Shown here one piece after another: positions 27,783 to 50,239 of a stretch of DNA of 64,000 bases (positions are counted from its first letter, which is position 1; each line of letters begins with the position of its first letter). Below the pieces are notes generated by a model. That model was not told where the DNA came from. It saw nothing but the letters and a program-made list of their open reading frames with translations, and ran no database searches. Source of the stretch: Burkholderiales bacterium (GTDB lineage Bacteria > Pseudomonadota > Gammaproteobacteria > Burkholderiales > Burkholderiaceae_C). The position numbers and the translations under genes are program-made. Where the stretch lies: assembly GCA_016213325.1 (NCBI GenBank), contig JACRAY010000011.1:1-64000 (forward strand), read 5' to 3'.

Positions 27783-29210
<1,428 letters not shown>

Positions 29211-29215
29211 GGGGA

Positions 29216-31458: not shown

Positions 31459-31482
31459 GGCTTTGTCTCCTGGTGGGTGGAA

Positions 31483-34195: not shown

Positions 34196-34196
34196 G

Positions 34197-35114: not shown

Positions 35115-35890
35115 GGGTTCGTGGGCCATTGGAAAGTGGGAGGAAGTTTGTCGAGGAAGCGTTGCACGGCCGCGCGATGTTCCGCCGTGCCGAAGGCCAG
35201 TGCCTGCGCGTTGGCTTCGGCGTCGAGGGCCGCATCGAGCGCACCGGCGTCGGCGACGTTGCGCTTGAGCAGGCTGACGGCCAGCGGCGCGGCTTCGGCG
35301 AAGCTGGCGGCCAGCGCCAGCGCGCGCGCCAGCAGCGCATCGGGCTCGTGCAGTTCCATCACGATGCCGAGTGCCAGGGCTTCGGCCGCCGGCACTTCGC
35401 GCGCCGACAACATCAGCTCGCGGGCGCGCTGCACGCCCACGGCGCGCGGCAGCGTGTACGACGCGCCGCAGTCGGGCACCAGGCCGAGCTTCAGGAAGGG
35501 CATGCAGAAGCGCGCGCGCGGCGTAGCCAGCACGAAGTCGGCGGACAGCGCGACACTGAAGCCGCCGCCGAAGGCCGCGCCGTCGACCGCGGCAATGACC
35601 GGGCGGTCCAGCAGGACCAGCTCGCGTATCCAGCGGTTCACGGTCTGCATGCGCAAGCGGCCCTCCGCGCCGGCCAGGGCGCCGCCGGCCATGCCGCGCA
35701 AGTCGCCGCCGGCGCAGAAATGGCCGCCGGCACCGGTGATGACGACGGCCCGCACTTCGCGGTCGGCGACGATGTCGGCCACGGCGCGTGCCAGGCCGTC
35801 CTTCAGCGCGGGCGTGAAGGCGTTGCGCGTCTCGGGGCTGTCGAGAGTGACCACGGCCGTTGCGCCCTGGCGTTGCAGGCGGACCGTCAT
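35111..35890 (-). CDS. Crotonase-family isomerase (PaaG-like)
   Basis: A 259-residue crotonase with HFCAGGDLRGM and DGAAFGGGFSVALSAD. Neither hydratase Glu is present: the first position is Ser (GGGFS) and the second is replaced in CMPFLKLGLVPDCG, where Asp appears in the VPD motif. This is the pattern of enoyl-CoA delta isomerases such as PaaG, not of hydratases. Hydration in this operon is then the job of the MaoC pair. The gene overlaps both neighbours by 4 bp. Confidence 0.83.
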   Translation of the reverse strand: MTVRLQRQGATAVVTLDSPETRNAFTPALKDGLARAVADIVADREVRAVVITGAGGHFCAGGDLRGMAGGALAGAEGRLRMQTVNRWIRELVLLDRPVIAAVDGAAFGGGFSVALSADFVLATPRARFCMPFLKLGLVPDCGASYTLPRAVGVQRARELMLSAREVPAAEALALGIVMELHEPDALLARALALAASFAEAAPLAVSLLKRNVADAGALDAALDAEANAQALAFGTAEHRAAVQRFLDKLPPTFQWPTNP

Positions 35891-37557
35891 GGCTTGGCTC
35901 CCGCGCGTGCAGCTTCCTGCAGCTCGCGCCACTGGACCTTGCCGGTGGCGGACTTCGGCAGCGCGTCGAGGAGCTCCACGAAGCGCGGCGCCTTGTACAC
36001 CGCCATGTGGCCGCGCGCCCAGGCCACCAGCTCCGGTTCGCCCAACTCGCCGCGCAGGCCCGGCTTGAGCACGACGAACGCCTTGACGGCCTCGCCCTGT
36101 TTCGCATCGGGCACGCCGACGACGCAGGCCTCGTGCACGGCCGGGTGTTCGTACATCATGTTCTCCACTTCGGCCGGCCAGACCTTGTAGCCCGACGTGT
36201 TGATCATCCGCTTGAGCCGGTCGCGCATGAAGAAGTAGCCTTCCTCGTCCATGGAGGCCAGGTCGCCGGTGCGGAAGAAGCGCTTGCCGTCGCGCTCGAA
36301 GAAGGACTCACGGTCGGCATCGGGGTTGCGCCAGTAGCCCGCCATGACCTGCGGCGCGTGCGTGACCAGTTCGCCCACTTCGCCCGGTGCCAGTTCCACC
36401 AGCGTCTCGGGGTCCACGATGCGCGTGTCGACGCCGGGCGCCGGGATGCCGAGGCATTGGCGCTTGCCGCGCTGCAGCGGGTTGGCCTGCAGGAAAGACG
36501 CCGTCTCGGTGAGGCCGTAGCCCTCGTTGTAGGTGATGCCGTGGCGCTCCTGCATCATCCGTGCGACGGCTTCGGGCATGGCGGCGGCGCCGCCCGACAC
36601 CAGGGCCAGGCTGGAGATGTCGCGCTGACCGGTCTCGGGGCTGGAGAACAGGTCGAGGATCATCGCCGGCGGCGCGGTCCACGCGGTTACGCGATGGCGC
36701 TCGATGAGGCGCGCCGCCAGGGCCGCGTTCCAGCGCGGCAGCATGACGGACGTGCCGCCGAGGAACACCGGCATGTTCATGCCGTTCTGCAGGCCGAGCA
36801 TGTGGAACAGCGGGGCGACGGTGAGCACCACGGTGTCGTTGTTGAGGCCTTTCCAAACCGAGGAGGCGGCCAGCGATGCGAGCACCGTGGCATGGGTGTG
36901 CATGCAGCCCTTGGGGCGGCCGGTGGTACCGGAGGTGTAGGGCAGTATGGCCAAGTCGGTAGGGTGGGCAACTTGTTGCCCACCGGCGCGTGCTTGCGAG
37001 TCGCCGGGTGGGCAGCAAGCTGCCCACCCTACGTGGGAGGGGTTGGTGAGAGGAAGGAGCGGTCGCGTCACCCAATCCGGCAATTCGTCCGGGCAGTCCG
37101 CCGCTACCGCTTGGCTGTACGCATGCACGACAACGCGCTCGAAGCCGTCGAAGTGTTCCAGCAACTCCTGCGCCGCAAAGGCCACGCACGCACCACTGTC
37201 GTCGGCATAGTGGCGCACTTCCTGCGCCTTGCTCATCGGATTGACCGGTACCACGACGCCGCGCGCGCGCAGGATCGAATAGAACGCGACGACGAACTGC
37301 GGGCAGTTCTGGCTGGCCAGCAGCACGCGGTCGCCGGGCTGCACGCCGGCGTCTTCCACCAGCCACGCTGCCAGTCCATCCACCTGCTGCTTCAGGTGGT
37401 CGTAGGTGGTGACGCTGCCGCAGTAAACGATGGCCGGCTTGTCCGGGAAGCGCCGCGCCGCCGTGTCCAGGTACTCGGGCAGCGTCGCGTGCGGCACGTA
37501 CAACTCGCGTGCCACGCCTTTCGGCCAGAACCGGAAGTGCGGTCGCTCGCTGCTCAT
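35887..37557 (-). CDS. AMP-forming acyl-CoA ligase with an in-frame repeat insertion
   Basis: A 556-residue ANL ligase with the P-loop LPYTSGTTGRPKGCMHTH (about residues 205-222), NEGYGLTETASF, RTGDLASMDEEGYFF and the C-terminal Lys in LPKSATGKVQW. Around residues 176-200, just before the P-loop, a Cys/Pro/Gly-rich segment unlike the rest of the protein is encoded by a palindromic repeat element (36959-37032); it keeps the frame. The ligase should activate the side-chain or branched acid for the operon. Start ATG 37557 overlaps the upstream dehydrogenase stop by 4 bp. Confidence 0.87.
   Translation of the reverse strand: MSSERPHFRFWPKGVARELYVPHATLPEYLDTAARRFPDKPAIVYCGSVTTYDHLKQQVDGLAAWLVEDAGVQPGDRVLLASQNCPQFVVAFYSILRARGVVVPVNPMSKAQEVRHYADDSGACVAFAAQELLEHFDGFERVVVHAYSQAVAADCPDELPDWVTRPLLPLTNPSHVGWAACCPPGDSQARAGGQQVAHPTDLAILPYTSGTTGRPKGCMHTHATVLASLAASSVWKGLNNDTVVLTVAPLFHMLGLQNGMNMPVFLGGTSVMLPRWNAALAARLIERHRVTAWTAPPAMILDLFSSPETGQRDISSLALVSGGAAAMPEAVARMMQERHGITYNEGYGLTETASFLQANPLQRGKRQCLGIPAPGVDTRIVDPETLVELAPGEVGELVTHAPQVMAGYWRNPDADRESFFERDGKRFFRTGDLASMDEEGYFFMRDRLKRMINTSGYKVWPAEVENMMYEHPAVHEACVVGVPDAKQGEAVKAFVVLKPGLRGELGEPELVAWARGHMAVYKAPRFVELLDALPKSATGKVQWRELQEAARAGAKP
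36959..37032. repeat. Palindromic repeat element (GTAGGGTGGGCA type) inside the ligase gene
   Basis: Perfect 12-bp terminal inverted repeats (GTAGGGTGGGCA and its complement at 37021-37032) enclose two back-to-back hairpins: 36963-36984 (10-bp arms, 2-nt loop) and 37006-37029 (11-bp arms, 2-nt loop). The 74-bp element plus 1 bp equals 25 codons, so the ligase frame is preserved. A partial relative lies at 62326-62351. The structure resembles REP/BIME-like or MITE-like dispersed elements. Confidence 0.85.
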
Positions 37558-38711
37558 TGCTTCTCCATGCCGCGGGCGATGATCTCCTTCATCACCTCGT
37601 TGGCGCCGCCGTAGATGCGGAACACGCGCGCATCGGCGTACAGCCGCGCGATCGGGTACTCGTTCATGTAGCCGTAGCCGCCGAAGAGTTGCAGGCACTC
37701 GTCGATCACGCGGCAGCAGGTGTCGCTGGCCCACCACTTGGCCATGGCCGCCGTCGGCACGTCGAGCTCGCCGCGCGCCAGCCGCGCGATGCAGTCGTCG
37801 ACGAACGAACGCGCCACGGTGGCCAGCGTCTGGCATTCGGCCAGCTTGAAGCGCGTGTTCTGCATGGCCATGAGCGGCTGCCCGAACACCTGCCGGTCGC
37901 GCACATAGACCAGCGTCTCGTCGATCGCGCGCTGCATGGTAGCCACCGCGCCTACGGCCAGCAGCAGCCGCTCGCGCGGCAGCTGCTGCATCAGCTGTGC
38001 GAAGCCGCTGCCTTCCTCGCCGCCCAGCAGGTTGTCCGCCGGCACCGGCGCGTCCTCGAAGAACAGCTCCGTGGTATCCAGCGTCTTCTGGCCCAGCTTG
38101 TCGAGCAGCGGACCACGCCGGAAGCCCGCCAGCCCTTCGGTCTCCACCACCAGCAGCGAGATGCCCTTGGCACCGGCCGCTTCGCCGGTCTTCACCGCCA
38201 CCACCACCAGGTTGGCGTGCAGGCCGTTGGTGATGAAGGTCTTGGCGCCGCTCACGCGATACGTGCCGCCTTCGCGGCGCGCCTGGGTGCGTATGCGTTG
38301 CAGGTCGGTGCCGGCGCCTGGCTCGGTCATGGCGATGGCGGCGACCAGCTCGCCGGTGGCCATGCGCGGCAGCCAGCGCTGCTTCTGCGGCTCGCTGCCG
38401 TAGGCCAGGATGTAGTGCGCCACGATGCCGCTGTGCACGTTGTTGCTGAAGGCCTGCGACATCGAGTACATCTGCTCCTCGCAGATCACCGCCTCGTGCA
38501 GCGCGCTGCCCCCGCTGCCGCCGTACGCCTGCGGGATGCTGGCGCACAGCAGGCCGGCGGCGCCCGCCTTGGCCCAGATCTCGCGGTCGGCGTGGTGCTG
38601 GGCGCGCCAGCGCATCTCGTGGGGCACGCACTCGCGCTGGAAGAAGCGCCGCGCCGAGTCGCGCAGCATCTGCAGCTCCTCGTCCATCCAGGCGCGCGGG
38701 GCGTCCCTCAC
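37554..38711 (-). CDS. Acyl-CoA dehydrogenase (isovaleryl-type catalytic base)
   Basis: A 385-residue dehydrogenase with MTEPGAGTDLQRIRT, KTFITNGLHANLV and LQLFGGYGYMNEYPIARLYA. The C-terminal catalytic-Glu position holds Gly (RIYGGANEV), while LPRERLLLAV supplies Glu in the internal helix used by isovaleryl-CoA dehydrogenase; such enzymes prefer branched substrates. I start at GTG 38711 because of the GTGA coupling seen repeatedly here; an ATG at 38688 is the alternative. Confidence 0.85.
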   Translation of the reverse strand: MRDAPRAWMDEELQMLRDSARRFFQRECVPHEMRWRAQHHADREIWAKAGAAGLLCASIPQAYGGSGGSALHEAVICEEQMYSMSQAFSNNVHSGIVAHYILAYGSEPQKQRWLPRMATGELVAAIAMTEPGAGTDLQRIRTQARREGGTYRVSGAKTFITNGLHANLVVVAVKTGEAAGAKGISLLVVETEGLAGFRRGPLLDKLGQKTLDTTELFFEDAPVPADNLLGGEEGSGFAQLMQQLPRERLLLAVGAVATMQRAIDETLVYVRDRQVFGQPLMAMQNTRFKLAECQTLATVARSFVDDCIARLARGELDVPTAAMAKWWASDTCCRVIDECLQLFGGYGYMNEYPIARLYADARVFRIYGGANEVMKEIIARGMEKQ

Positions 38712-39535
38712 GGCCGGCCGCCTCCGCAGACCAGCACCTGGCCGCTGACGTAGTTGGACTCGGGGATGCAGAACAGGTACACCGCGCCCGCCGCTTCTTC
38801 CGGCGTGCCCCCGCGGCCCAGCGGGATCATGGCTTCGGCGTTCTTCAGGATCTGCGGGTTGACGCCCACGCGGATCTCGTTGCCCTGCACGTTGATGGTG
38901 GCGCCGGCATTGGCGTCGGCTTCGGTCAGCCGGGTCTTGATGAGGCCGAAGGCGACGCTGTTCACGTTGACCTTGTAGCGGCCCCATTCCTTGGCCATCG
39001 CCTTGGTCAGCCCGTTGATGCCGGCCTTGGCGGCCGCGTAGTTGGCCTGGCCCGCGTTGCCGTACACGCCCGAGGTGGAGGAGATGTTCACCACCTTGCG
39101 GAACACGTCGCGGCCTTCTTCCGCTTCGCGCTTGTTGGCCTCGCGGATGAAGTGCGCGGCAGCGCGCAGGATGCGGAAGGGTGCGGTCAGGTGCACGGCC
39201 AGCATGGCCTCCCACTGGTCGTCGCTCATCTTCTGCACGACGCTGTCCCACGTGTAGCCGGCGTTGTTGACGATGATGTCGAGGCCGCCGTAGTTCTCCA
39301 GCGCGGTGCCGATGAAGCGTTCGGCGAAGCCTGCGTCGGTCACGCTGCCGGCGCAGGCGACGGCTTGCCCGCCGGCCGCGACGATGTCGGCGACGGCCTG
39401 TTGCGCGGGTTCGGCGTCGAGGTCGTTGATGACGACGCGAGCGCCCTCGCTTGCGAGCTTCAGCGCGATCTCGCGCCCGATGCCGCGGCCGGAGCCCGAC
39501 ACCAGAGCGACCTTGCCTTCGAGTTTGCGGTTCAT
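38708..39535 (-). CDS. SDR-family 3-hydroxyacyl-CoA dehydrogenase
   Basis: A 275-residue SDR with SGSGRGIGREIA near residue 15, NNAGYTWDSVVQKMS in the core and the Ser-Tyr-Lys triad in NISSTSGVYGNAGQANYAAAK. An insertion of about 10 residues before the catalytic Ser (REANKREAEEG) is slightly unusual. It follows the MaoC gene by 16 bp and overlaps the dehydrogenase by 4 bp. It probably oxidises the product of the MaoC hydratase; the operon carries a second, longer SDR for another hydroxyacyl-CoA. Confidence 0.84.
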   Translation of the reverse strand: MNRKLEGKVALVSGSGRGIGREIALKLASEGARVVINDLDAEPAQQAVADIVAAGGQAVACAGSVTDAGFAERFIGTALENYGGLDIIVNNAGYTWDSVVQKMSDDQWEAMLAVHLTAPFRILRAAAHFIREANKREAEEGRDVFRKVVNISSTSGVYGNAGQANYAAAKAGINGLTKAMAKEWGRYKVNVNSVAFGLIKTRLTEADANAGATINVQGNEIRVGVNPQILKNAEAMIPLGRGGTPEEAAGAVYLFCIPESNYVSGQVLVCGGGRP

Positions 39536-39551: not shown

Positions 39552-39968
39552 TCAGAGCGGCCAGGCGACCAGCGCCTCGCCGGACAGCTTGGCCATGCCG
39601 TCGGAGTTGGTGGTGGCCAGCGCGATACGGGCGCAGCGCTCGCCTTCGTGCTCGAAGGTCTCGGTCACCGTGCCGGTGCAGGTGATGCGCTCGCCCACGT
39701 GCGTGATGGCGGCAAAGCGCACGTCCAGCGACCGGATCGCGCACTGCGGCACCCAGTCGGTCAGCAGGCGGCCCAGCCACGCGGCCGACAGCATGCCGTG
39801 GGCAAACACGTCGGGCATGCCGGCCGATTTGGCGAAGTCGATGTCGACGTGGATCGGGTTGTGGTCGCCCGAGGCGCCGCAGTACAGCGCGAGGTCCAGC
39901 CGGGTGATAGGCGGCAGTGCGAGCGGCGGCAGCCGGTCGCCGGCCTTCAGGGCGGTGGGGTCAACCAT
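39552..39968 (-). CDS. MaoC-type hydratase, catalytic subunit
   Basis: A 138-residue single-hotdog protein with the hydratase 2 motif ASGDHNPIHVDIDFAKSAG and VFAHGMLSAAWLG; Asp and His of GDHNPIH are the catalytic pair. It is preceded by a degenerate hotdog gene overlapping it by 8 bp, so the active enzyme is probably a heterodimer as in HadAB/HadBC or ChsH1-H2. It would hydrate the enoyl-CoA made by the operon's dehydrogenases. Confidence 0.86.
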   Translation of the reverse strand: MVDPTALKAGDRLPPLALPPITRLDLALYCGASGDHNPIHVDIDFAKSAGMPDVFAHGMLSAAWLGRLLTDWVPQCAIRSLDVRFAAITHVGERITCTGTVTETFEHEGERCARIALATTNSDGMAKLSGEALVAWPL

Positions 39969-40404
39969 GGCGCACCACCGTCACGCAGCGCAGGTCGGCC
40001 ACGGGTTCGTGGCGCTGGTTGCTGACCTGCGTGCGGCGCACCACGAATTCCAGCGCGCCGTTCTTCTTGTCGTAGATGTCCTCGATGCGCTGGCGGAAGG
40101 TGAGCGTGTCGCCCGCATGCGCCAGGCGGTGGTAGGTGAAGCCCTGCTCGCCATGCAGGATTCGGCGGTAGTCGATGTCGAGCAGTTCGCGGATGGCGGC
40201 GGGGTTGGGCGACTCCATCTCCAGGCAGAACAGGAAGGTCGGCGGCACCGGCAGCGACGCATGCCCTGCGGCCTGCGCGGCCGCTTCGTCCGTGTAGACG
40301 GGGTCGGCCTGCCCGGTGGCCCTGGCGAAGAAGCGCAGGCGGCCCCTTTCGACTGCCACCGTGAAGGCGGGCAGTTCGTGGCCGATGTGGCGACGGTCGA
40401 TCAT
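39961..40404 (-). CDS. MaoC N-type (FAS1-like) hotdog subunit without catalytic residues
   Basis: A 147-residue hotdog protein. It has the FAS1-like dehydratase N-terminal pattern FARATGQADPVYTDEAAAQAAG and PPTFLFCLEME, but lacks the Asp/His catalytic motif of its neighbour. In two-subunit hydratases this partner binds the acyl chain. Overlaps of 4 bp with the SCP-x thiolase gene and 8 bp with the catalytic hotdog gene support stoichiometric production. Confidence 0.82.
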   Translation of the reverse strand: MIDRRHIGHELPAFTVAVERGRLRFFARATGQADPVYTDEAAAQAAGHASLPVPPTFLFCLEMESPNPAAIRELLDIDYRRILHGEQGFTYHRLAHAGDTLTFRQRIEDIYDKKNGALEFVVRRTQVSNQRHEPVADLRCVTVVRHG

Positions 40405-41597
40405 TGCACCGCCTGGTACAGCGTCACGACACAGGCGCCGCCCAGGCCCAGGTTGTGCTGCAGCGCGAGCCGCGCGCCTTCCACCTGGCGCTGCTCGGCC
40501 CGGCCGCGCAGCTGCGACACGAGTTCGTAGCACTGCGCGAGGCCGGTGGCACCCAGCGGGTGGCCCTTGGACAGCAGGCCGCCCGACGGATTGGTGACGA
40601 TGCGCCCGCCGTACGTGTTGTCGCCGTCCACGATGAAGCGCTCGGCGGTGCCTTCGGGCGTGAGGCCCAGCGCCTCGTAGGTGATCAGCTCGTTGGCGGT
40701 GAAGCAGTCGTGCAGTTCGACCACGTCGAGCTCGTCGGGCCCGATGCCCGCCGCTTCGTACACCTGCTGCGCCGCAGCCACCGTCATGTCGTAGCCGACC
40801 AGCTTGCGCATGTCCTTGCTGTCGAAAGTGGAGGGCGTGTCGGTGGTCATCGCCTGCGCCGCGATGACGACGCGCAGGTCGAGGCCGTGCTTCTTCGCGA
40901 ATTCTGCCGAGCAGACGATGGCGGCCGCTGCGCCGCACGTGGGCGGGCAACACTGGAAGCGGGTCAGCGGGTCGAACACGGTCGGCGCGGCCATCACTTC
41001 GTCGAGCGTGAGCGTCTGGCGGAACACGGCTAGCGGATTGCGCGCCGCGTGCTGGCGCGCCTTCACCGAGATGCGGCCGAAGGTGTCCTTGCGGATGCCG
41101 TACTGCGCGATGTAGTCACGCCCGGCGCCGCCGAAGAACTGTGCGGCACGGGGAGCCTGGGGGTCGTAGCCCTGCTTCCCGGTCATGGCCTCGGCGAACT
41201 TCGCCATCGGCGCCGGACGGTCGTCGTACGCGCCCTTCAGCGCGCCGGGCTGCATCTGCTCGAAGCCGAGCGCGATGGCGCATTCGACCACGCCGCTTTC
41301 CACCGCCTGCCGCGCGAGGTACAGCGCCGACGAGCCGGTGGAGCAGTTGTTGTTGAGGTTGAAGACCGGGATGCCGGTGAGCCCGACGCCGTAGATCGCG
41401 GCCTGGCCGGCGGTGGAGTCGCCGTACACATAGCCCACATAGGCCTGTTGCACCAGCGCGTAGTCGACGCCGGCGTCTTCCAACGCCAGCTTCGCCGCGC
41501 GGGCGCCCATCACGGTGTAGGGATCGCTGGCACCGGGCTTGGTGAAGGGAATCATGCCCACGCCGACGACGTGGACGGGGCGCTGCATGCGCGTCAT
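40401..41597 (-). CDS. SCP-x-type thiolase
   Basis: A 398-residue thiolase of the sterol-carrier-protein-x group. Nucleophile Cys85 is in NNNCSTGSSAL; the third motif is HDCF, diagnostic for SCP-x thiolases as opposed to NEAF; GHPLGATG follows, and the C-terminus lacks a fused SCP2 domain. Such enzymes cleave 2-methyl-branched 3-ketoacyl-CoAs, releasing propionyl-CoA or acetyl-CoA. It is the first gene of the 12-gene operon. I chose ATG 41597 with AGGAG 7 nt upstream; ATG 41588 is possible. Confidence 0.88.
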   Translation of the reverse strand: MTRMQRPVHVVGVGMIPFTKPGASDPYTVMGARAAKLALEDAGVDYALVQQAYVGYVYGDSTAGQAAIYGVGLTGIPVFNLNNNCSTGSSALYLARQAVESGVVECAIALGFEQMQPGALKGAYDDRPAPMAKFAEAMTGKQGYDPQAPRAAQFFGGAGRDYIAQYGIRKDTFGRISVKARQHAARNPLAVFRQTLTLDEVMAAPTVFDPLTRFQCCPPTCGAAAAIVCSAEFAKKHGLDLRVVIAAQAMTTDTPSTFDSKDMRKLVGYDMTVAAAQQVYEAAGIGPDELDVVELHDCFTANELITYEALGLTPEGTAERFIVDGDNTYGGRIVTNPSGGLLSKGHPLGATGLAQCYELVSQLRGRAEQRQVEGARLALQHNLGLGGACVVTLYQAVQ

Positions 41598-41601
41598 GGA
41601 G

Positions 41602-41626
41602 GACTCCTGTTGGTTCGACAGGAGTC
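41602..41626. promoter_or_regulatory. Perfect 9-bp inverted repeat at the operon start
   Basis: GACTCCTGT-N7-ACAGGAGTC lies directly upstream of the SCP-x thiolase start. Read on the minus strand, one arm contains the AGGAG ribosome site and the other overlaps the predicted -10 hexamer (41623-41628). It could be a DNA operator at the transcription start or, if transcription begins further upstream, an RNA hairpin that hides the ribosome site. Confidence 0.6.
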
Positions 41627-41648
41627 TCGCCGCGGGTGGCCGCCGGCT

Positions 41649-41677
41649 CAATCGCCGATCGGGACAAAACGATTGGC
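41649..41677 (-). promoter_or_regulatory. AraC-type operator, copy A (12-gene operon)
   Basis: CAATCGC-N15-GATTGGC followed by GGAAA on the plus strand. It is one of three copies with identical spacing (others at 47921 and 50195). Read toward the operon, CAAT is followed after exactly 20 bp by the -10-like GAGACT, so the proximal half overlaps the -35 region, as expected for an AraC-family activator. Confidence 0.7.
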
Positions 41678-41685
41678 GGAAATGT

Positions 41686-42174
41686 TCAGCCGGGCGGCGC
41701 GGCCTCGCGCAGCCAGCCGTCCAGCGCCGCCCCCACCAGGCTGTATGCCCGGCCGAACCCGGCCACCAGCCGCGCGGACACGGGCTTCAGGGTGAACAGC
41801 GAAAAGTCACCTAGCTCGAAGGTCTGCTCCGAGTCCGGGAAGCAGGCGAGGTAGTGCGCCTTCGCCTGCGCATAGGCCGCGCCGCCGCGGTCCAGCTGCA
41901 CCGCATCGGCCTGCAGCGCCACGCGCGGCAATGCTTGTGGCGACCAGGGCCCGCCGGCCTCCGCCATCACCAGCACGCCGACCCTGGCGTGCCCCAGCAT
42001 GTCGCGCGTGTGGGTGGCCAGCCCGCTCACGTGGACCAGCAGGTCCGTCGCGCCTGCCGGCAGGACGAACGGCACCATCGACACCGCAGGTTCGCCGCGG
42101 TGCAGCGTGGCGAGCGCAGCGACCGGGCGCTTCGAGAGCAGGGACCGCAGGAGGAGCGAGGCGTCGGCGTCCAT
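41686..42174 (-). CDS. Pyridoxamine 5'-phosphate oxidase-like (HugZ-type) protein
   Basis: A 162-residue split-barrel flavin-binding-fold protein: LLRSLLSKRPVAALATLHRG at the start, VPFVLPAGATDLLVHVSGLATHTRD in the barrel and GDFSLFTLKPVSARLVAGFGRAY near the C-terminus, a pattern shared with HugZ-like haem-utilisation proteins. Family members bind FMN or haem, and the precise role is unclear. It is divergent from ppk2 and follows the operator region of the 12-gene operon. It appears unrelated to the CoA modules. Confidence 0.75.
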   Translation of the reverse strand: MDADASLLLRSLLSKRPVAALATLHRGEPAVSMVPFVLPAGATDLLVHVSGLATHTRDMLGHARVGVLVMAEAGGPWSPQALPRVALQADAVQLDRGGAAYAQAKAHYLACFPDSEQTFELGDFSLFTLKPVSARLVAGFGRAYSLVGAALDGWLREAAPPG

Positions 42175-42202
42175 GGTGCCATTCTGCCGCTACCATGCAT
42201 CG

Positions 42203-43003
42203 ATGAAGAGGCCCAAACCCGGCAAGGCCGACAAGCTCGGCAAGAAGGACTACCTCGAACAGCTTGCCGCTTTGCAGGTGGAACTGAACGAGGTGGCCCG
42301 CTGGCTGCAGCACACGGGCCAGCGGCTGGCCGTGGTGGTCGAAGGCCGCGACACGGCAGGCAAGGGCGGCGTGATCGCGGCGATTGCCGACACCCTGAAC
42401 CCGCGACAGTGCCGCACCGTAGCGCTGGCCAAGCCCAGCGAGCGCGAGAAGACGCAGTGGTACTTCCAGCGTTATGTGCCGCACCTGCCGGCTGCCGGCG
42501 AGATCGTGCTGTTCGACCGCAGCTGGTACAACCGCGCCGGCGTCGAGCGCGTGATGGGCTTCTGCACGCCGGCCGAGACCAAGGCTTTCCTGGCGCAGGC
42601 GCCGGTGTTCGAGAAGCTGCTGGTCGACGACGGCATCCTGCTCCTGAAGTATTGGCTGACGGTGGACCAGGCGCAGCAGGAAGAACGTTTTGCCGAGCGG
42701 CTGGCCGATCCGCTGAAGCGCTGGAAGCTCAGTCCCATCGACGTGCAGGCACGTGCCAAGTACGCGGAGTACGGCGCGGCGCGTGACGCCATGCTGAAGG
42801 CCACGCACACCAGGGCCTGTCCTTGGACGCTGGTGGACTTCAACGACCAGCGGCGCGGGCGGCTCACGCTGATCCGCCACCTGCTCGACCAGGTGCCGGA
42901 CCGGCGCGTGCCCGAGGCGCTGGTGGAGTTCCCGCCGCTGGGCCACGAGCCGCTGCGCGAGAAGTTCGGCGTGCCGCCGAAGCCGGTCAAGGCGGCCGGC
43001 TGA
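42203..43003 (+). CDS. ppk2: Polyphosphate kinase 2
   Basis: A 266-residue single-domain PPK2. The Walker A motif EGRDTAGKGG is near residue 50, the Walker B/lid start is LFDRSWYNRAG near 105, and the intervening and C-terminal helices are typical of the family (QWYFQRYV, KYWLTVD, HLLDQVP). PPK2 enzymes phosphorylate nucleotides from polyphosphate or run the reverse reaction. ATG 42203 was chosen because the conserved sequence begins shortly after it and the frame upstream runs over the divergent gene. Confidence 0.92.
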   Translation: MKRPKPGKADKLGKKDYLEQLAALQVELNEVARWLQHTGQRLAVVVEGRDTAGKGGVIAAIADTLNPRQCRTVALAKPSEREKTQWYFQRYVPHLPAAGEIVLFDRSWYNRAGVERVMGFCTPAETKAFLAQAPVFEKLLVDDGILLLKYWLTVDQAQQEERFAERLADPLKRWKLSPIDVQARAKYAEYGAARDAMLKATHTRACPWTLVDFNDQRRGRLTLIRHLLDQVPDRRVPEALVEFPPLGHEPLREKFGVPPKPVKAAG

Positions 43004-43015
43004 CGCACTCCCCGC

Positions 43016-43807
43016 TCACCACTTGTTGCGCAACTCGCGCAACTTCGTGAACACTGTCTTCGCATCCGGCCGGTCCGGCAGGTCGGGGAAGTCCTCGCGC
43101 AGCTTCGCGATCACGCCGGGACTGTCCAGCCGCATGAACGTGTTGATGCGCTGCTCGTCGGCCAGCGTGGTGACAAGCGACGTTGCGGGGTCGTGGCCGG
43201 CCACCTGGGGCAGCATCGAACGCGCCGCCTCGTTGCCCGGCTCGCGCGCCAGCGTGAACTTCAGGTTGTTCTCGATGTAGTCGTGCCCCGGGTACACCAG
43301 CGTGTTGGCCGGCAGCTTTGCGAGCTGGCCGACGAAGGTGGCGTACAGGTCGTCCACGTTGCCGCCGTTGTGCACGTTGCCGGCACCGGCGTTGAACAGC
43401 GTGTCCCCGGAAAACAGTGCCGGCTGGTCGGTGTGCGATCGCAGGCAGATGTGGCACATCGTGTGGCCGGGCGTGTCCATGCATTCCAGCTCGACGCGCT
43501 TGCCCACCTTGATCACGTCGCCGGCCTGCACGCCGCGGTCTACGCCGGGAATGCGGCCGGCTGCTCGGTGGTGCGCGATCACCTTGGCGCCGGTGGCCGC
43601 CACCACCGCGGCATTGCCGCCGATGTGGTCGTGGTGCTCGTGCGTGTTGAGCACCTGCGTGATCTGCCAGCCCTTCACACGGGCGGTGGCCAGCGTCTTC
43701 TCGTGGTCCAGCGGGTCGATGGCCAGCGCCTCGCCGGTCTCGGGGCAGGCCACCAGGTAGTTGTAGTTGCGGTACGCGTTACCGGTCCAGATGCGTTCGA
43801 CGATCAT
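43016..43807 (-). CDS. gloB: Hydroxyacylglutathione hydrolase-like metallo-beta-lactamase-fold protein (glyoxalase II type)
   Basis: A 263-residue binuclear metal hydrolase with the THEHHDHIGG signature, PGHTMCHIC, FSGDTLFNAG and YPGHDYIENN, which supply the zinc ligands in glyoxalase II order. It would hydrolyse S-lactoylglutathione in methylglyoxal detoxification. It lies 23 bp downstream of a thioesterase gene, so it could be read through from that operon or carry its own promoter. A related thioester hydrolase function is possible. Confidence 0.87.
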   Translation of the reverse strand: MIVERIWTGNAYRNYNYLVACPETGEALAIDPLDHEKTLATARVKGWQITQVLNTHEHHDHIGGNAAVVAATGAKVIAHHRAAGRIPGVDRGVQAGDVIKVGKRVELECMDTPGHTMCHICLRSHTDQPALFSGDTLFNAGAGNVHNGGNVDDLYATFVGQLAKLPANTLVYPGHDYIENNLKFTLAREPGNEAARSMLPQVAGHDPATSLVTTLADEQRINTFMRLDSPGVIAKLREDFPDLPDRPDAKTVFTKLRELRNKW

Positions 43808-43830
43808 CGAGTCCTCCGTTGGATCGACGC

Positions 43831-44202
43831 CTATTCTGGCAGGCTGCGCACCCCTTCGGCATCGCGATAGCGAAACGTCCCCATCGCCTGCGCGGCCGCG
43901 CTGCCGTGCTCGTCCAGCACCTGCGCCTCGCAGAAGCACACCGACCGGCCGCCGCCGGTGGCGCGCGCGGTGGCTACGAGGCGGCCCGACGATGCGGCCA
44001 CGAAGCCCACGTGCAGGTCCACCGTGACCACCTCGCGCGTGAAGCCGGTGCGCGACCTGGCGGCGTTGGCCATCGCCACGCCCAGCAGCGTCACCAGCGC
44101 GCCGCCGTGGAAAGCGTCGTGGGCCTCCGGATCACGCGACTGCGGCTCGAGCGACGCCACCGCTTCGCCGCCAACGGCCCGCTCCAGCCGGATGCCCTTC
44201 AT
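43831..44202 (-). CDS. PaaI-type hotdog thioesterase
   Basis: A 123-residue acyl-CoA thioesterase-fold protein: HDAFHGGALVTLLGVAMANAARS with the HGG segment, then VVTVDLHVGFVAASSGRLVATA and the C-terminal MGTFRY. It is the last gene of the ligase/DECR2-like operon, overlapping the SDR by 4 bp. Two PaaI-type genes in one operon suggest editing of dead-end CoA esters or release of CoA from trapped intermediates. Confidence 0.84.
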   Translation of the reverse strand: MKGIRLERAVGGEAVASLEPQSRDPEAHDAFHGGALVTLLGVAMANAARSRTGFTREVVTVDLHVGFVAASSGRLVATARATGGGRSVCFCEAQVLDEHGSAAAQAMGTFRYRDAEGVRSLPE

Positions 44203-45005
44203 ACCCTGGCCTGGCGGCTGGCCTCGGCGGCGGCAGTGAAGTCGCGCGGGCCGGTGAGCGCGAGCCCGCCGTCCACCGGGATCACCGCCCCCGTGACGTA
44301 GGAGCCCCAGTCGCTCGCCAGCACCATCGCCATGCGCGCGATGTCCTCGATGCGCCCCAGCCGCTTGAGCGGTACGCGCTGGGCCATCGCATCCAGCGTG
44401 CCGTCGGTCGGCGCCAGGCGCTTCAGGCCTTCGGTGTCGGCGATCGGGCCCGGCACGATGGAATTGATGCGGATGCCTTCGGCCCCCCACTCCTGCGCCA
44501 GCACGCGCGTGAGCATGTCCACGCCGGCCTTGGCCGCGCACACGTGCGCCTGGTAGGGCGTGGGCGTGAAGGACTGGCCGGCGGAGATCTGCACGATGGA
44601 CGCACCGGGCTTGCGCAGGTGCGGGTGCGCGAGCCGCGCCACGTTGAAGCTGCCCAGCAGGTCGATGTCGACGACGGTCTTGAAAGCGTTGGGCGACATG
44701 TCCAGCGCGCGCGCCAGGAAGTTGCCGGCGGCGCCGGACACCAGCACGTCGATGGGGCCAAAGCGTTCGGCGGCGGCGGCGAAGGCGCCCTGCAGCGCCT
44801 CCGGCTGGCGCACGTCGGCCGCCATGCCGAGGGCCTGGACGCCCAGCGACTGGATCTGAGCAGCCGCTGCCGCCACCTTGTCGGCCGAACGGCTGATGAG
44901 GCTCACGTTGGCGCCGGCGCACGCGAACGCCTGCGCGATGCCGAAGTTGATGCCGCTGGAGCCGCCGGCCACGAACACGTGCCGCGAAGAGAAGTCGAAG
45001 GCCAT
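44199..45005 (-). CDS. SDR related to peroxisomal 2,4-dienoyl-CoA reductase (DECR2-like)
   Basis: A 268-residue SDR with GGSSGINFGIAQAF near the start and SGAAGNFLARALDMS in the core. The catalytic YxxxK Tyr is absent (HVCAAK holds Val at that place), while GAEGIRINSIVPGPIADTEG and LKRL closely resemble peroxisomal 2,4-dienoyl-CoA reductase. It should reduce dienoyl-CoA intermediates with NADPH. ATG 45005 has GGAG five bases upstream; a GTG at 45011 overlapping the Bug stop is the alternative. Confidence 0.82.
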   Translation of the reverse strand: MAFDFSSRHVFVAGGSSGINFGIAQAFACAGANVSLISRSADKVAAAAAQIQSLGVQALGMAADVRQPEALQGAFAAAAERFGPIDVLVSGAAGNFLARALDMSPNAFKTVVDIDLLGSFNVARLAHPHLRKPGASIVQISAGQSFTPTPYQAHVCAAKAGVDMLTRVLAQEWGAEGIRINSIVPGPIADTEGLKRLAPTDGTLDAMAQRVPLKRLGRIEDIARMAMVLASDWGSYVTGAVIPVDGGLALTGPRDFTAAAEASRQARV

Positions 45006-45007
45006 GA

Positions 45008-45970
45008 TCACTCCGGTTTGAAGCCGATTTCGGCCAGCATCTTCTGCTCGCGCTCGAACTGGGCGCGCGCGTAGGCCGCGTAGGCCTCGGCGCTCGTCAC
45101 GTTGGGCTGCATGTCGAACAGCTCCACCTGCTGCAGGTAAGCCGGGTCGGCGGCGGCCTTGCGGAAGGCGGCGTGCAGCCGCGCGGCGATCTTCGCATCC
45201 AGGTTCTTCGGCGCTACCAGGCCGACGGGCGACTCGATGACGAGGTCATGGCCCAGCTCCTTGATGGTGGGCGCGTCGTAGCGCTTCAGCCGCTGCGCGG
45301 TGAAGGTGGCGAGCAGCCGTGCCTTGCCGCCCTGCACCTGCGGGCCGAAGCCCGGGTCGCCGTACACGTCCAGGTGGCGGCCGATCAGCGCCTGGAAGCT
45401 CTCGGCGCCGCCCTTGAAAGGCACCAGGTTGAACTTGGTACCCGCGGCCTTGGCCAGCCGCTCGGCGTAGATGCGGTTCACGCTGATCGCGCCCACGTTG
45501 CCCCAGCTGATGGCGCCGGGACGCTTCTTCGCGTCGTCCAGCAGTTCACGCATGGACTTCCACGGCGCGTCGGCCGCCACCGTGATGCCGGTGGTGAGGT
45601 TGGCCAGCCCGATCAGGTAGGTGAAGTCCTTCAGCGGATCGAAGGTCACCTTCTGCACCAGCGGCGCGCGGATCACCGAGTTGTGCATCACGGCGATGGT
45701 GTAGCCGTCCGCATCCATAGTGGCCAGCCCTGCCGTGCCGGTCACGCCGCCCGCGCCCGGTTTGTGCATCAGCACCACCGGCTGGCCGAGGTCCTGCGCC
45801 GCGGCGTTCGCGAGCGAGCGGAAGATCGGGTCGAACGAGCCGCCGGCCGGGAAGGGCAGCACCAGCTGGATCGGGCGGCTGGGGTAGGGGTCGCTGGCGA
45901 AGGCCGGAGCGGCCGCAGCGGCGGCCAGCAGCGCGGCGATGGCGCTGCGGCGGGTGAAGGTTGGCGTCAT
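45008..45970 (-). CDS. Bug/TctC-type periplasmic receptor
   Basis: A 320-residue TTT substrate-binding protein with signal peptide (FTRRSAIAALLAAAAAAPAFA), YPSRPIQLVLPFPAGGSFD, HKPGAGGVTGTAGL and a divergent C-terminal lobe lacking the common VAESGVPGF segment. It overlaps both the thioesterase and SDR genes. It is the receptor of the AraC-regulated ligase operon. Confidence 0.9.
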   Translation of the reverse strand: MTPTFTRRSAIAALLAAAAAAPAFASDPYPSRPIQLVLPFPAGGSFDPIFRSLANAAAQDLGQPVVLMHKPGAGGVTGTAGLATMDADGYTIAVMHNSVIRAPLVQKVTFDPLKDFTYLIGLANLTTGITVAADAPWKSMRELLDDAKKRPGAISWGNVGAISVNRIYAERLAKAAGTKFNLVPFKGGAESFQALIGRHLDVYGDPGFGPQVQGGKARLLATFTAQRLKRYDAPTIKELGHDLVIESPVGLVAPKNLDAKIAARLHAAFRKAAADPAYLQQVELFDMQPNVTSAEAYAAYARAQFEREQKMLAEIGFKPE

Positions 45971-46391
45971 GGGGTGTCTCCGTTGGCGGGAAGGGGCAGG
46001 TAGCGAAAGGATCCGTGGGCCTGGGCGACGAGGCGACCACGCTCGTCGGTCACGCTGGCGCGGCAGGTGGCAATGTCGTCGTCGCGGCCCACCACCTCGC
46101 CATCGGCGGTGAGGCGGCCGCGGCCGGGTTCGAGAAAGCTGGAGCTGCAGTTCAGCGTGACGGCGGTCCGCTTGAAGTCGACGCGCGACACGGCGGCGCT
46201 GGCCATCACCACGTCCAGCAGCGTGAAGACGACACCGCCGTGCACCGAGCCGATCACGTTGCCCAGCTCGGGCCGCGCATCGAGCACCAGCCGGGCCCGG
46301 CCGTCGGCCGAGAACTCGCGGCGTACGCCGAGCAGCCCCATGAAGGGCACCGCGTCGAACAGCTTGCGCGGGTCGGCACCCGTCACCGGCT

Positions 46392-46395
<4 letters not shown>
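45967..46395 (-). CDS. PaaI-type hotdog thioesterase
   Basis: A 142-residue hotdog protein: GNVIGSVHGGVVFTLLDVVMA with the HGG catalytic segment, and TLNCSSSFLEPGRGRLTADGEV. It is the second gene of the operon, in ATGA overlap with the ligase gene and with the Bug gene. Substrate unknown; it is distinct in sequence from the other thioesterase of the operon. Confidence 0.85.
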
Positions 46396-47888
<1,493 letters not shown>

Positions 47889-47920
47889 GCCGCGAGGTTA
47901 GGCGCGTGCGCGCCGCGCAC

Positions 47921-47949
47921 CAATGGCCGGAACGGCCAAAGCGATTGGC
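47921..47949 (-). promoter_or_regulatory. AraC-type operator, copy B (ligase operon)
   Basis: CAATGGC-N15-GATTGGC followed by AGGAA. It lies between the araC stop and the ligase start, 33 bp from that start. Reading toward the ligase, CAAT-N20-TAACCT has the same geometry as copies A and C. Confidence 0.72.
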
Positions 47950-47967
47950 AGGAATCGTCCGTTGCCG

Positions 47968-48984
47968 CTACGTGCCGGGTTGCGTGCGCGAGCTGCGGTA
48001 CTCGCCCGGCGCGACGCCTGTCCAGGACTTGAACGCGCGGTGGAAGGTGCTGGCCTCCGAGAAGCCCACGCGGTTGGCGATGTCGAGCAGCGGCAGGCGG
48101 CTGGCGGTCAGCAGTTCCACCGCGGTGTCGCGCCTGAGCTCGTCCTTGATCTGCTGGAAGCCGCGGCCTTCTTCCCGCAGGCGCCGGCGCAGCGTCTGCG
48201 GCGTAACGGCCAGCGCTTCGCCCACTTCTTCCAGCGACGGCAATTCATCGCCCAGGCGCTTGCGCAGCAGGCGCCGGATGCGCTCGGTGAGGTTGCTCGA
48301 GTCGCGGTAGCGCACCACCAGGCTGGCCGGCGTGCCGGCCAGGAACTCGCGCAGGCTCTGCGGCGACTGCACGACCGGCAGGTCGAGCCAGTGCGCATCG
48401 AAGGTCATGCCCACGTGCGGCTGCGCGGAGCGCAGCGGCGCCTGGTAGACACGCGACGTCTCCGAAGACTGCATGCCTGCGGTGTAGTCCACGCCGGTCA
48501 ACGGGATACGGCGCGCCACCAGCCACGACGCGGAGCCGAAGGTGAACAGCATGAACGCCTTCACGGCGTAGTCGAGCCGCGCATCGCTGGGCCGGCGCAG
48601 CACGAAGCGGATGCGGGCCTGTCCCGACTCCACCGCAAGCCGCGCCACGAAGTCGTCGAGCAGCAGGTCGTAGAAGGCGAAGCCGCGGCGCAAGGCGGCG
48701 CCCAGCGTCGCACAGCCCACCAGGTGCTGCATGCACTGGCCGAAGGTGCCGGGGCGCAGCGGGCTGCTGGTCAGGCCCCACAGTTCGTCGCGCAGTTCGC
48801 GGCGCAGCAGGCGCAGCAAGCCGGCGTACTGCTGCTGCGAGACGCGGGCCAGCGGCGAGTCCAGCAGCAACGGCGGGATGCCGGCCCGCTCGAGCAGCGC
48901 CGTCACGTCCTTGCCGCGGTAGCGCGCCCCCTGCAGCACCATCTGCACCTGCTGGATCGCAACCGTGTGGCGGGGAGCCGTCAT
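47968..48984 (-). CDS. AraC-family regulator (OruR/ArgR-like architecture)
   Basis: A 338-residue protein with an N-terminal domain of the arabinose-binding AraC type found in OruR-like regulators (residues about 10-200) and a C-terminal double HTH (about 235-335: LEEVGEALAVTPQTLRRRLRE, then LPLLDIANRVGFSEASTFHRAF). The start overlaps the racemase-like gene stop by 4 bp, so the two are co-transcribed. Direct repeats matching its expected 22-bp helical spacing lie upstream of its own operon, the adjacent ligase operon and the 12-gene operon, making it the candidate activator of all three. Confidence 0.88.
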   Translation of the reverse strand: MTAPRHTVAIQQVQMVLQGARYRGKDVTALLERAGIPPLLLDSPLARVSQQQYAGLLRLLRRELRDELWGLTSSPLRPGTFGQCMQHLVGCATLGAALRRGFAFYDLLLDDFVARLAVESGQARIRFVLRRPSDARLDYAVKAFMLFTFGSASWLVARRIPLTGVDYTAGMQSSETSRVYQAPLRSAQPHVGMTFDAHWLDLPVVQSPQSLREFLAGTPASLVVRYRDSSNLTERIRRLLRKRLGDELPSLEEVGEALAVTPQTLRRRLREEGRGFQQIKDELRRDTAVELLTASRLPLLDIANRVGFSEASTFHRAFKSWTGVAPGEYRSSRTQPGT

Positions 48985-50162
48985 TGCGGCCCGATGGTAC
49001 CGCCGTCAAGGAGGGCGGCGATTTCCGCCTCGTCGAAGCCGGCCTCGCGCAGCACTTCATGCGTGTGCTGCCCGGCAAGCGGCGCGGCTCGCGGCGCAAC
49101 CGGCTGCCAGCCGCTCATCTTCACCGGGCAGCCCAGTTGCTGCGACCCCTGCTCGCGTCCGGGCAGCACCATCGCGCGCGCCTGGAAGTGCGGATGGGCC
49201 AGCGCTTCGCCGAGTTTCAGCACCGGCGTGACGCAGGCTTCGCCGTCGGCGAACAGTGCCGTCCAGTGCGCCAGCGGTCGGGCCGCGAAGACCGCCTCGA
49301 GTTCGGCACGCACACGCTCTTCCACGGCCGGGTCGCCGCTGCGGTGCAGCGAGGTGAGGTCTTCGCGTTCGAGCTGGCGGCATAGCGCCTCCCAGAACTT
49401 GCGCTCGAGGGCGCCGACGGCCACGAAGCGGCCGTCCGATGTGCGATACAGGCCGTAGCAGGCGAGCGCGCCGGTCAGGGTGCCCTGGCCCGCCGGCTGC
49501 ACATGGCCATGCTGGTTGAGCGCGGCCAGCGGCAGCACGGCATGCGCCAGCACGCCGTCGGCGATGGCCACGTCCACGTGGCGGCCGCAGCCGGTGCGCT
49601 GCGCGTCGAACAGCGCCGCGAGGATGCCCATCACCGCCGTCATGGTGCCGCCCAGCAGGTCGGCCAGGGGCAGGTTCGACAGCGCAGGGCCGGCGGCGGT
49701 GCCGACCTGGTCGACTACGCCCGTCAGCGCTCCGTAGTTCAGGTCGTGGCCGGGCCGGTCCTTCAAGGGGCCTGACTGCCCGAAGCCGCTGATGCTGCAA
49801 TACACGAGGCGCGGGTTTACGGCCGACACCGCGTCGTAGCCGACGCCGAGCCGCTGCATCACGCCCGGGCGGAAGCCTTCAACCAGCACGTCGGCATCGC
49901 GCGCCAGGCGCAGCAGCGTGCGCGCACCGGCCGGCTGCTTCAGGTCGATGCGGATGGCGCGCTTGTTGCGATTGACGAGTTCGCGCACGGACGCCGTGGC
50001 GTAGTCGCCCGCGCCCATGTCCTCGACCTTGATCACGTCGGCGCCGAGGTCGGCGAGGTGCAGGGCCGCCATGGGACCGGGCAGCAGGCGCGTGAGGTCG
50101 AGCACGCGCACGCCGGCGAGCGGCGCGCCCGATGCGCGGCCGGGAGAAGTCGTTGGGTTCAC
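48981..50162 (-). CDS. Alpha-methylacyl-CoA racemase-like family III CoA-transferase homologue
   Basis: A 393-residue CaiB/BaiF protein. The region RPGHDLNYGALTG (His139) and LSNLPLADLLGG (Asp168) reproduces the His/Asp pair and about 30-residue spacing known from alpha-methylacyl-CoA racemase. Such enzymes epimerise 2-methylacyl-CoAs so that stereospecific dehydrogenases can act on them. It starts at GTG 50162, 6 nt after a predicted -10 (TACAGT), again suggesting a leaderless message. It is co-transcribed with araC. A true CoA-transferase is the alternative. Confidence 0.78.
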   Translation of the reverse strand: MNPTTSPGRASGAPLAGVRVLDLTRLLPGPMAALHLADLGADVIKVEDMGAGDYATASVRELVNRNKRAIRIDLKQPAGARTLLRLARDADVLVEGFRPGVMQRLGVGYDAVSAVNPRLVYCSISGFGQSGPLKDRPGHDLNYGALTGVVDQVGTAAGPALSNLPLADLLGGTMTAVMGILAALFDAQRTGCGRHVDVAIADGVLAHAVLPLAALNQHGHVQPAGQGTLTGALACYGLYRTSDGRFVAVGALERKFWEALCRQLEREDLTSLHRSGDPAVEERVRAELEAVFAARPLAHWTALFADGEACVTPVLKLGEALAHPHFQARAMVLPGREQGSQQLGCPVKMSGWQPVAPRAAPLAGQHTHEVLREAGFDEAEIAALLDGGTIGPQ

Positions 50163-50194
50163 GCGCCGACTGTAGGCGGCGGCGGCACGCGCGC

Positions 50195-50223
50195 CAATGG
50201 CAGCTTCGTGCAGCCCGATTGGC
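50195..50223 (-). promoter_or_regulatory. AraC-type operator, copy C (racemase-araC operon)
   Basis: CAATGGC-N15-GATTGGC followed by AAGAA, located 33 bp upstream of the GTG at 50162, the same distance as copy B from its gene. CAAT-N20-TACAGT repeats the geometry of the other two copies. Presence in front of araC's own operon implies autoregulation. Confidence 0.72.
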
Positions 50224-50239
50224 AAGAAGTGGAAGTTGC

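What the first reader, a model, noticed from the sequence alone, without database searches (positions are those of the whole stretch)
41649..50223. Three identical-geometry direct-repeat operators define an AraC regulon spanning the side-chain-like operons
CAAT(G/C)GC-N15-GATTGGC occurs at 41649-41677, 47921-47949 and 50195-50223, always upstream of a minus-strand operon start, always followed by (A/G)(A/G)GAA-like bases (AGGAA, AAGAA, GGAAA), and always with CAAT exactly 20 bp from a -10-like hexamer (GAGACT, TAACCT, TACAGT). The half-sites share xAxTGGC with a 22-bp period, about two helical turns, as AraC-family dimers use. The araC gene lies between two of the sites. All this is read from the sequence; regulation by this AraC protein is inferred.
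Basis: partly seen in the sequence, partly recalled or inferred. Interest (0 to 1): 0.85.

Follow-up and report, generated by a model that had tools for sequence, protein, structure and literature searches.

The report
Conserved AraC switch for branched-acid breakdown
Three matching control sites probably let one regulator switch on three neighbouring gene groups, likely for breaking down branched fatty acids, and the same regulator and sites recur in many related bacteria.

Summary
CAATSGC-N15-GATTGGC occurs exactly three times in the 5.4-Mb genome, all in this window, each upstream of a minus-strand operon. Read in the direction of transcription, each site is a 22-bp direct repeat, roughly TTGR-N8-GGCSAWTS twice, whose second half overlaps a -35 lying 17 bp from a -10. 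The family consensus favours a direct repeat (4.79) over any inverted one (3.12). A matrix trained on 28 sites found 119 more in 67 of 73 named loci that encode the same AraC protein, with none at that score for column-permuted matrices. Of these, 116 precede a same-strand homologue of a window gene, mostly the SCP2-type thiolase, the CaiB-family gene, an acyl-CoA ligase or a TctC receptor. In 250 family genomes sites go with this AraC (11 of 19 with it, 2 of 231 without). Best reading: an autoregulated, class-II-type AraC/XylS activator of a peroxisome-like gene set for 2-methyl-branched acyl-CoAs (racemase, MFE-2-type steps, SCP2 thiolase). Binding, activation and inducer are inferred. New member of a known kind; nine searches of an open-licence library showed no description of it.

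The parts
41648..41691 (-). Operator 1 (two 22-bp half-sites), upstream of the SCP2-thiolase operon
   Evidence: leave-one-genome-out score 45.4 against 9.3 as the best of 20 permuted controls
47920..47963 (-). Operator 2, upstream of the acyl-CoA ligase operon
   Evidence: score 35.6
50194..50237 (-). Operator 3, upstream of the CaiB-family gene and araC (autoregulation); weakest of the three
   Evidence: score 23.0
41646..41651 (-). -35-like TTGAGC of promoter 1, overlapping the proximal half-site
   Evidence: sequence
41623..41628 (-). -10-like GAGACT of promoter 1, 17-bp spacer
47918..47923 (-). -35-like TTGGTG of promoter 2
47895..47900 (-). -10-like TAACCT of promoter 2; ATG begins after 6 further nt (leaderless-like)
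50192..50197 (-). -35-like TTGGCG of promoter 3
50169..50174 (-). -10-like TACAGT of promoter 3; GTG begins after 6 further nt (leaderless-like)
47968..48984 (-). araC: 338 aa, Arabinose_bd + HTH_18
   Evidence: Pfam; orthologue alignment
48981..50162 (-). CaiB/CoA-transferase III family protein, closest solved relatives alpha-methylacyl-CoA racemases (start GTG inferred)
46392..47888 (-). AMP-forming acyl-CoA ligase (operon 2, first gene)
45967..46395 (-). 4HBT thioesterase
45008..45970 (-). TctC-type solute receptor
44199..45011 (-). SDR, closest solved relative peroxisomal 2,4-dienoyl-CoA reductase
43831..44202 (-). 4HBT thioesterase
40401..41597 (-). SCP2-type thiolase (operon 1, first gene)
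39961..40404 (-). FAS1-like dehydratase-domain protein (possible hydratase-2 half)
39552..39968 (-). MaoC-like hydratase (possible other half)
38708..39535 (-). SDR, best solved relative a (3R)-hydroxyacyl-CoA dehydrogenase (2et6)
37554..38711 (-). acyl-CoA dehydrogenase (start approximate)
35887..37551 (-). acyl-CoA ligase (start approximate)
35111..35932 (-). enoyl-CoA hydratase
34197..35110 (-). SDR, best solved relatives (3R)-hydroxyacyl-CoA dehydrogenase 2et6 and HSD17B4 (start approximate)
30484..34200 (-). likely tail of operon 1: ChsH2-type zinc-ribbon/OB protein, second thiolase, acyl-CoA dehydrogenase, TctC receptor
   Evidence: operon membership inferred from strand and spacing

Best explanation
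The three sites are operators of the AraC-type protein at 47968-48984. A dimer binds each as a head-to-tail pair of 22-bp half-sites; each half-site has an upstream TTGR box and a downstream GGCSAWTS box for the two HTH motifs of one monomer. The proximal half-site overlaps the -35, so with inducer the protein contacts RNA polymerase and activates a promoter with a weak -35 and a 17-bp spacer (class-II activation). Site 3 drives the CaiB-family gene plus araC itself (positive autoregulation), site 2 the ligase/thioesterase/receptor/reductase operon, site 1 the thiolase operon. Together they encode a peroxisome-like set (racemase, MaoC-type hydratase, (3R)-hydroxyacyl-CoA dehydrogenase, SCP2 thiolase) suited to 2-methyl-branched acyl-CoAs. 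Shown here: the sites, their conservation, polarity, promoter position and co-occurrence with this AraC. Inferred: binding, activation, operon extents, the substrate, and a branched acid or its CoA ester as inducer.
For: Exactly 3 exact genome hits, all here. Matrix trained on 28 sites: 119 sites at score 20 or more in 67 of 73 non-duplicate named AraC loci, 0 in 20 column-permuted controls. In 116 of 119 the nearest downstream homologue of a window protein (within 800 bp) is on the same strand; best -10 spacer is 17 bp in 85 of 119 and 18 bp in 19, of 13-22 tried. The 22-bp direct repeat scores 4.79, the best inverted arrangement 3.12, the CAAT/ATTG inversion 2.73. The distal TG box lay outside the matrix, yet 29 of its 37 hits at 20 or more have TG there (TG frequency 6.9%). 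Genomes with AraC at 51% or more: 11 of 19 have a site at up to 2 mismatches, without: 2 of 231; the reversed pattern hits 0 of 250. 16 of 17 thiolase+AraC genomes have a site above 20, 0 of 5 thiolase-only genomes. AraC domains. Enzymes. The layout matches published XylS, MtlR and SphR sites (passages read).
Against: No binding or expression data. G174, both G079 copies and the second G175 copy (contig end close by) have the AraC but no site at 20 in their loci, and 6 of 73 named loci have none at 20 (L133 is just under). G061 has a site before a short 70%-identical CaiB match but no AraC match at E 1e-15; G214 has a site with only a 29% relative. At up to 3 mismatches 15 of 231 AraC-less genomes also hit. 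The patterns and matrices came from AraC loci of these genomes, the named loci were found through AraC, several are close kin of training genomes, and Fisher's test takes genomes as independent. Four of the 5 thiolase-only genomes have a more distant thiolase (69-72%). The symmetry scores sum over different numbers of column pairs. Site 3 is weak and lacks a good distal TTGR box; within the window sites only 9, 12 and 10 of 22 positions repeat.
Confidence: 0.85

Rival explanations
1. The sites are palindromic operators (GCCAATSG-N15-CSATTGGY) of another dimeric regulator, for example a TetR- or LacI-type repressor.
For: GCCAATCG faces CSATTGGY, with up to two mismatches, in all three window sites. 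In the family consensus the CAAT/ATTG inversion scores 2.75 and 2.73, above every direct shift other than 22 bp. A LacI-type gene lies at 52593-53639.
Against: The bases outside ATTG are poorly conserved across 119 sites, whereas the GGC and TTG boxes repeat at 22 bp; the direct score is higher (4.79); 116 of 119 sites point towards the downstream gene with a mostly fixed -35 position. In loci around other genomes the window's LacI gene was not among the tblastn matches shown. I did not search systematically for another regulator that follows the sites.
Confidence: 0.07
2. AraC binds the sites but represses the operons until the substrate arrives, rather than activating.
For: The proximal half covers the -35, where a bound protein could also block polymerase.
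Against: The 17-bp spacing and overlap with only the -35 are what class-II AraC/XylS activators show (recalled; published layouts in passages). A simple scan found no sigma-70-like promoter in 41500-50400, but only 0.3 were expected by chance, so this says little.
Confidence: 0.08
3. The three sites are a recently copied promoter element or mobile repeat with no regulatory meaning.
For: Three similar copies within 8.6 kb in one genome.
Against: Flanks and spacers differ between copies; orthologous sites stand in front of orthologous genes in many genera while the spacer bases change.
Confidence: 0.01

Closest known systems
XylS (TOL plasmid) and MtlR operators of the AraC/XylS family
   Same: Head-to-tail half-sites each made of two boxes: XylS TGCA-N6-GGNTA-N6-TGCA-N6-GGNTA (21 bp), MtlR AGTGC-N5-AGTAT-N7-AGTGC-N5-AGGAT (22 bp), just upstream of the -35 in MtlR (passages of PMC4514859).
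   Different: Different boxes (TTGR, GGCSAWTS), N8 between them, other target genes.
SphR of Pseudomonas aeruginosa
   Same: AraC-family protein sensing a lipid, few target promoters in the genome, two direct-repeat half-sites TGNCCSNNRNNSNCC 6-8 bp apart (abstract and passages of PMC3900636).
   Different: Other half-site and other pathway; homology was not tested here.
GliR and QhpR (NCBIfam equivalogs)
   Same: Best NCBIfam matches of this AraC (161 bits over residues 9-333, 150 bits over 51-330).
   Different: Far below the curated cut-offs (570 and 250), so not a member of either.
Mammalian peroxisomal branched-chain beta-oxidation (AMACR, MFE-2/HSD17B4, SCPx, DECR2; pathway recalled)
   Same: The predicted regulon holds relatives of a racemase, HSD17B4-type dehydrogenases, SCP2 thiolase and peroxisomal 2,4-dienoyl-CoA reductase.
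   Different: Hydratase halves, dehydrogenase and thiolase are separate bacterial proteins, and an acyl-CoA dehydrogenase stands in for the oxidase.

Membership tests
AraC/XylS transcription factor family | C-terminal double-HTH domain (HTH_18/HTH_AraC) | tested here: met
   HTH_18 67.2 bits, HTH_AraC 36.1 bits, above cut-offs
AraC/XylS transcription factor family | N-terminal ligand/dimer domain of a known AraC type | tested here: met
   Arabinose_bd PF12625 117.8 bits
AraC/XylS dimer operator | Two directly repeated half-sites 21-22 bp apart, each with two boxes | tested here: met
   22 bp is the best of direct shifts 5-39 in 28 and in 119 sites; single window sites are less regular
AraC/XylS dimer operator | Proximal half-site at or over the -35 (class II) | tested here: met
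   TTG of the proximal box starts a hexamer 17 bp from the -10 in all 3 window sites and in 85 of 119 others
AraC/XylS dimer operator | Binding by the cognate protein | not testable with these tools
   no binding data; co-occurrence only
GliR equivalog (NF050186) | Score at or above curated cut-off 570 | tested here: not met
   161.3 bits
QhpR equivalog (NF049968) | Score at or above curated cut-off 250 | tested here: not met
   149.8 bits
alpha-methylacyl-CoA racemase (for the CaiB-family gene) | Catalytic Arg91, His126, Asp156, Glu241 of the mycobacterial enzyme (numbers recalled) | tested here: met
   all four identical in the printed alignment to 9i2t, counted by eye
alpha-methylacyl-CoA racemase (for the CaiB-family gene) | Racemase rather than CoA-transferase activity | not testable with these tools
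   best NCBIfam matches are CoA-transferases, all 7 below cut-off

The most novel reading that the evidence does not exclude
One dedicated AraC-type sensor controls a bacterial counterpart of the human peroxisomal branched-chain pathway (racemase, MFE-2-type hydratase and dehydrogenase, SCP2 thiolase, 2,4-dienoyl-CoA reductase) across Burkholderiales, and its direct ligand is a 2-methyl-branched acyl-CoA or acid, with several of its target operons read from leaderless mRNAs.
Probability: 0.3. Interest if true: 0.6.

Novelty: new member of a known kind. Interest (0 to 1): 0.45.

Why it matters
It turns a pattern spotted by eye into a defined, testable regulon with a 44-bp operator, a named regulator gene and few target promoters per genome (1 to 3 by the long pattern in 13 genomes) in many Burkholderiales such as Variovorax, Curvibacter, Cupriavidus and Achromobacter. 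If the pathway reading is right, it gives a handle on how these bacteria sense and degrade branched or isoprenoid-like acids, and a candidate biosensor for such compounds.

Tried and rejected
Palindrome reading: seen first, set aside after the family consensus favoured a 22-bp direct repeat. The first long pattern had one N too many and is void (hits in 2 of 250 genomes, 1 control hit). The matrix round took in 43 hits at a low threshold; I kept 28 by eye and dropped 15 (L067 second strand, two in L068, L073 minus, two in L075, L077 minus, four in L081, two in L082, L086, window 5461), some of which I took to lie inside genes without testing it and some of which (L075, L081) are probably real. 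Structure prediction and fold search were not used. Literature: nine full-text searches listed no paper whose title or abstract start concerned this regulator or operator; one search listed 12 of 55. Beyond listings I read passages of PMC4514859, PMC3900636 and PMC12543098 only, the last not relevant. The library holds open-licence papers only.
Full report
Check of the observation. The genome that holds the window has 5,398,720 bases; the pattern has exactly three exact matches in it, all in this window, four with one mismatch and 60 with two. With three mismatches allowed the short pattern is little better than chance inside the window (20 found, 14.2 expected).

Anatomy. On the transcribed (minus) strand the family form of the site is roughly TGANNNTTYNKGCCAATSNNNTTGNNNNNNNNGGCSATTG, then 20 nt, then a TANNNT-like -10. 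Reading TTG of the last box as the start of the -35 gives a 17-bp spacer in all three window sites. The distal TGA box and the inner TTG box, and the GCCAAT and GCSATT boxes, are each 22 bp apart. The 22-bp direct repeat scores 4.92 in the 28 training sites and 4.79 in 119 further sites. The best inverted arrangement, a short CCAA/TTG match inside the distal half, scores 3.29 and 3.12; the CAAT/ATTG inversion scores 2.75 and 2.73. These sums run over different numbers of column pairs (30, 24 and 19). The distal TG box was outside the matrix, yet 29 of its 37 hits at 20 or more carry TG there, against a TG frequency of 6.9%. The single window sites are less regular: 9, 12 and 10 of 22 positions are identical between the halves, and sites 2 and 3 lack TGA in the distal box.

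Regulator. The gene at 47968-48984 encodes a 338-residue protein with Arabinose_bd and HTH_18 domains. In 250 genomes of the family, 31 have a match at E 1e-60; 19 of them, this genome included, have one at 51% identity or more. One protein from each of these 19 was aligned.

Conservation of the sites. A matrix from the three window sites alone found 13 hits at 20 bits or more in 27 loci around AraC genes (mean 0.06, at most 1, in 100 permuted matrices); one of the 13, in L086, I later dropped. Leave-one-genome-out scores are 45.4, 35.6 and 23.0 for the window sites, with 9.3 as the best of 20 permuted controls. Of the 22 other loci scored that way, 18 have a site at 20 or more (17 in my kept list, plus L081); L068, L078, L080 and L082 do not. 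Seven are contigs already used; in the other 73 the 28-site matrix finds 119 sites at 20 or more, in 67 loci, against 0 in 20 permuted controls (at 12 or more: 130 against a mean of 0.8). Some of the 73 are close kin of training genomes, so they are not all independent. The nearest downstream homologue of a window protein within 800 bp is on the same strand in 116 of 119, opposite in 1, and absent in 2; genes without a window homologue were not seen by this test. The first homologues are thiolase 35, CaiB 33, ligase 23, TctC 20, others 6. Eight Variovorax loci (L120-L124, L126, L130, L132) have three sites, before CaiB-araC, before the ligase operon and before the thiolase operon, as here.

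Does the site follow the AraC protein? The long pattern at up to 2 mismatches hits 13 of 250 genomes; 11 are among the 19 with this AraC, 2 among the other 231 (Fisher p 1.2e-12; at 3 mismatches 13 of 19 and 15 of 231, p 4e-10). The reversed pattern hits none. The pattern was drawn from AraC loci of these genomes and the genomes are related, so the p-values overstate the case; what counts is the rarity elsewhere. Of the two exceptions, G061 has a site before a short match 70% identical to CaiB but no AraC at E 1e-15, G214 only a 29% relative. Given the thiolase at E 1e-180 (22 genomes), 16 of the 17 with this AraC show a site above 20 in the fetched stretch; G079 does not. The 5 without it (G178, G046, G122, G105, G196) show none, best scores below 0; four of them have only a 69-72% thiolase. 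The matrix was trained on many of these sites, so the positive count is partly by construction, the negative count is not. In 16 loci of AraC relatives at 37-42% identity, 14 score below 10; L055 (19.3) and L086 (14.3) are higher.

Regulon size. Thirteen named genomes searched whole with the long pattern at up to 3 mismatches give 24 hits, 1 to 3 each; 18 lie in the stretch fetched around the AraC gene, one 1.7 kb beyond it, and five elsewhere: before a thiolase (L208), a ligase (L221), a TctC gene (L213) and a divergent ligase/TctC pair (L219, L223). The pattern misses weaker sites, so these are lower bounds.

What the operons do. The CaiB-family protein is closest to fatty-acyl-CoA and alpha-methylacyl-CoA racemases among solved structures (219.9 bits) and keeps the four catalytic residues of the mycobacterial enzyme (numbers recalled); its NCBIfam matches are mostly CoA-transferases, all below cut-off. 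The thiolase is closest to SCP2-thiolase type 1 and passes the PRK08256 model. Two SDRs are closest to the (3R)-hydroxyacyl-CoA dehydrogenase 2et6 and one to peroxisomal 2,4-dienoyl-CoA reductase. Hydratase-like proteins, acyl-CoA dehydrogenases, ligases, thioesterases and TctC receptors complete the set. The substrate is not shown.

Mechanism. Class-II activation with positive autoregulation is the most likely reading: polar direct repeat, proximal half over the -35, mostly 17-bp spacer, poor -35 hexamers. A simple promoter scan of 41500-50400 found none, but only 0.3 were expected. Published AraC/XylS operators have a like layout (XylS, MtlR in PMC4514859; SphR in PMC3900636; passages read).

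Leaderless starts. In 2 of the 3 window promoters the start codon follows the -10 after 6 nt. Over 147 sites, 38 have ATG or GTG with an open frame of at least 120 codons 3-10 nt after the expected -10, against 18 of 732 control windows upstream of the sites. The control is not matched for nearness to gene starts and transcription starts are not mapped, so this is a prediction.

Verdict. A real, conserved AraC/XylS-type regulon, probably not described before as far as nine searches of an open-licence library can tell. New member of a known kind; clear and testable, moderately surprising.

Noticed in passing
47888-47900 and 50160-50174 (-); also L062, L069, L072, L075, L120-L130, L132: Start codons 3-10 nt after the expected -10 at 38 of 147 sites against 18 of 732 control windows, suggesting leaderless mRNAs for some ligase and CaiB operons.
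   Followed up: partly
41686-43810: A PPK2-type gene on the + strand (longest ORF 41999-43003, reaching into the PNPOx-like gene 41686-42174), and an HAGH-like gene, sit between the 4HBT gene and site 1; in the Variovorax locus L211 the 4HBT gene is followed within 10 nt by the site and then the thiolase.
   Followed up: no
27783-30490 (+): A PaaA/PaaC-like gene (below cut-off) and a ferredoxin/NAD-binding oxidoreductase gene converge on the end of the thiolase operon and resemble benzoyl-CoA epoxidase genes (name recalled).
   Followed up: no
L055:2558-2600: A 39%-identical AraC relative has a variant site (score 19.3) just after it, so the operator layout may extend to a wider clade.
   Followed up: no
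L158, L162, L168: MAG contigs labelled Ectothiorhodospiraceae, Rhodospirillaceae and Falsiroseomonas carry the araC gene, the last two with the thiolase cluster; binning errors or transfer.
   Followed up: no
G097, G198: The two other sampled genomes of the same genus show no AraC (E 1e-60), no thiolase (E 1e-180) and no site (3 mismatches), so the cluster is patchy within the genus.
   Followed up: no
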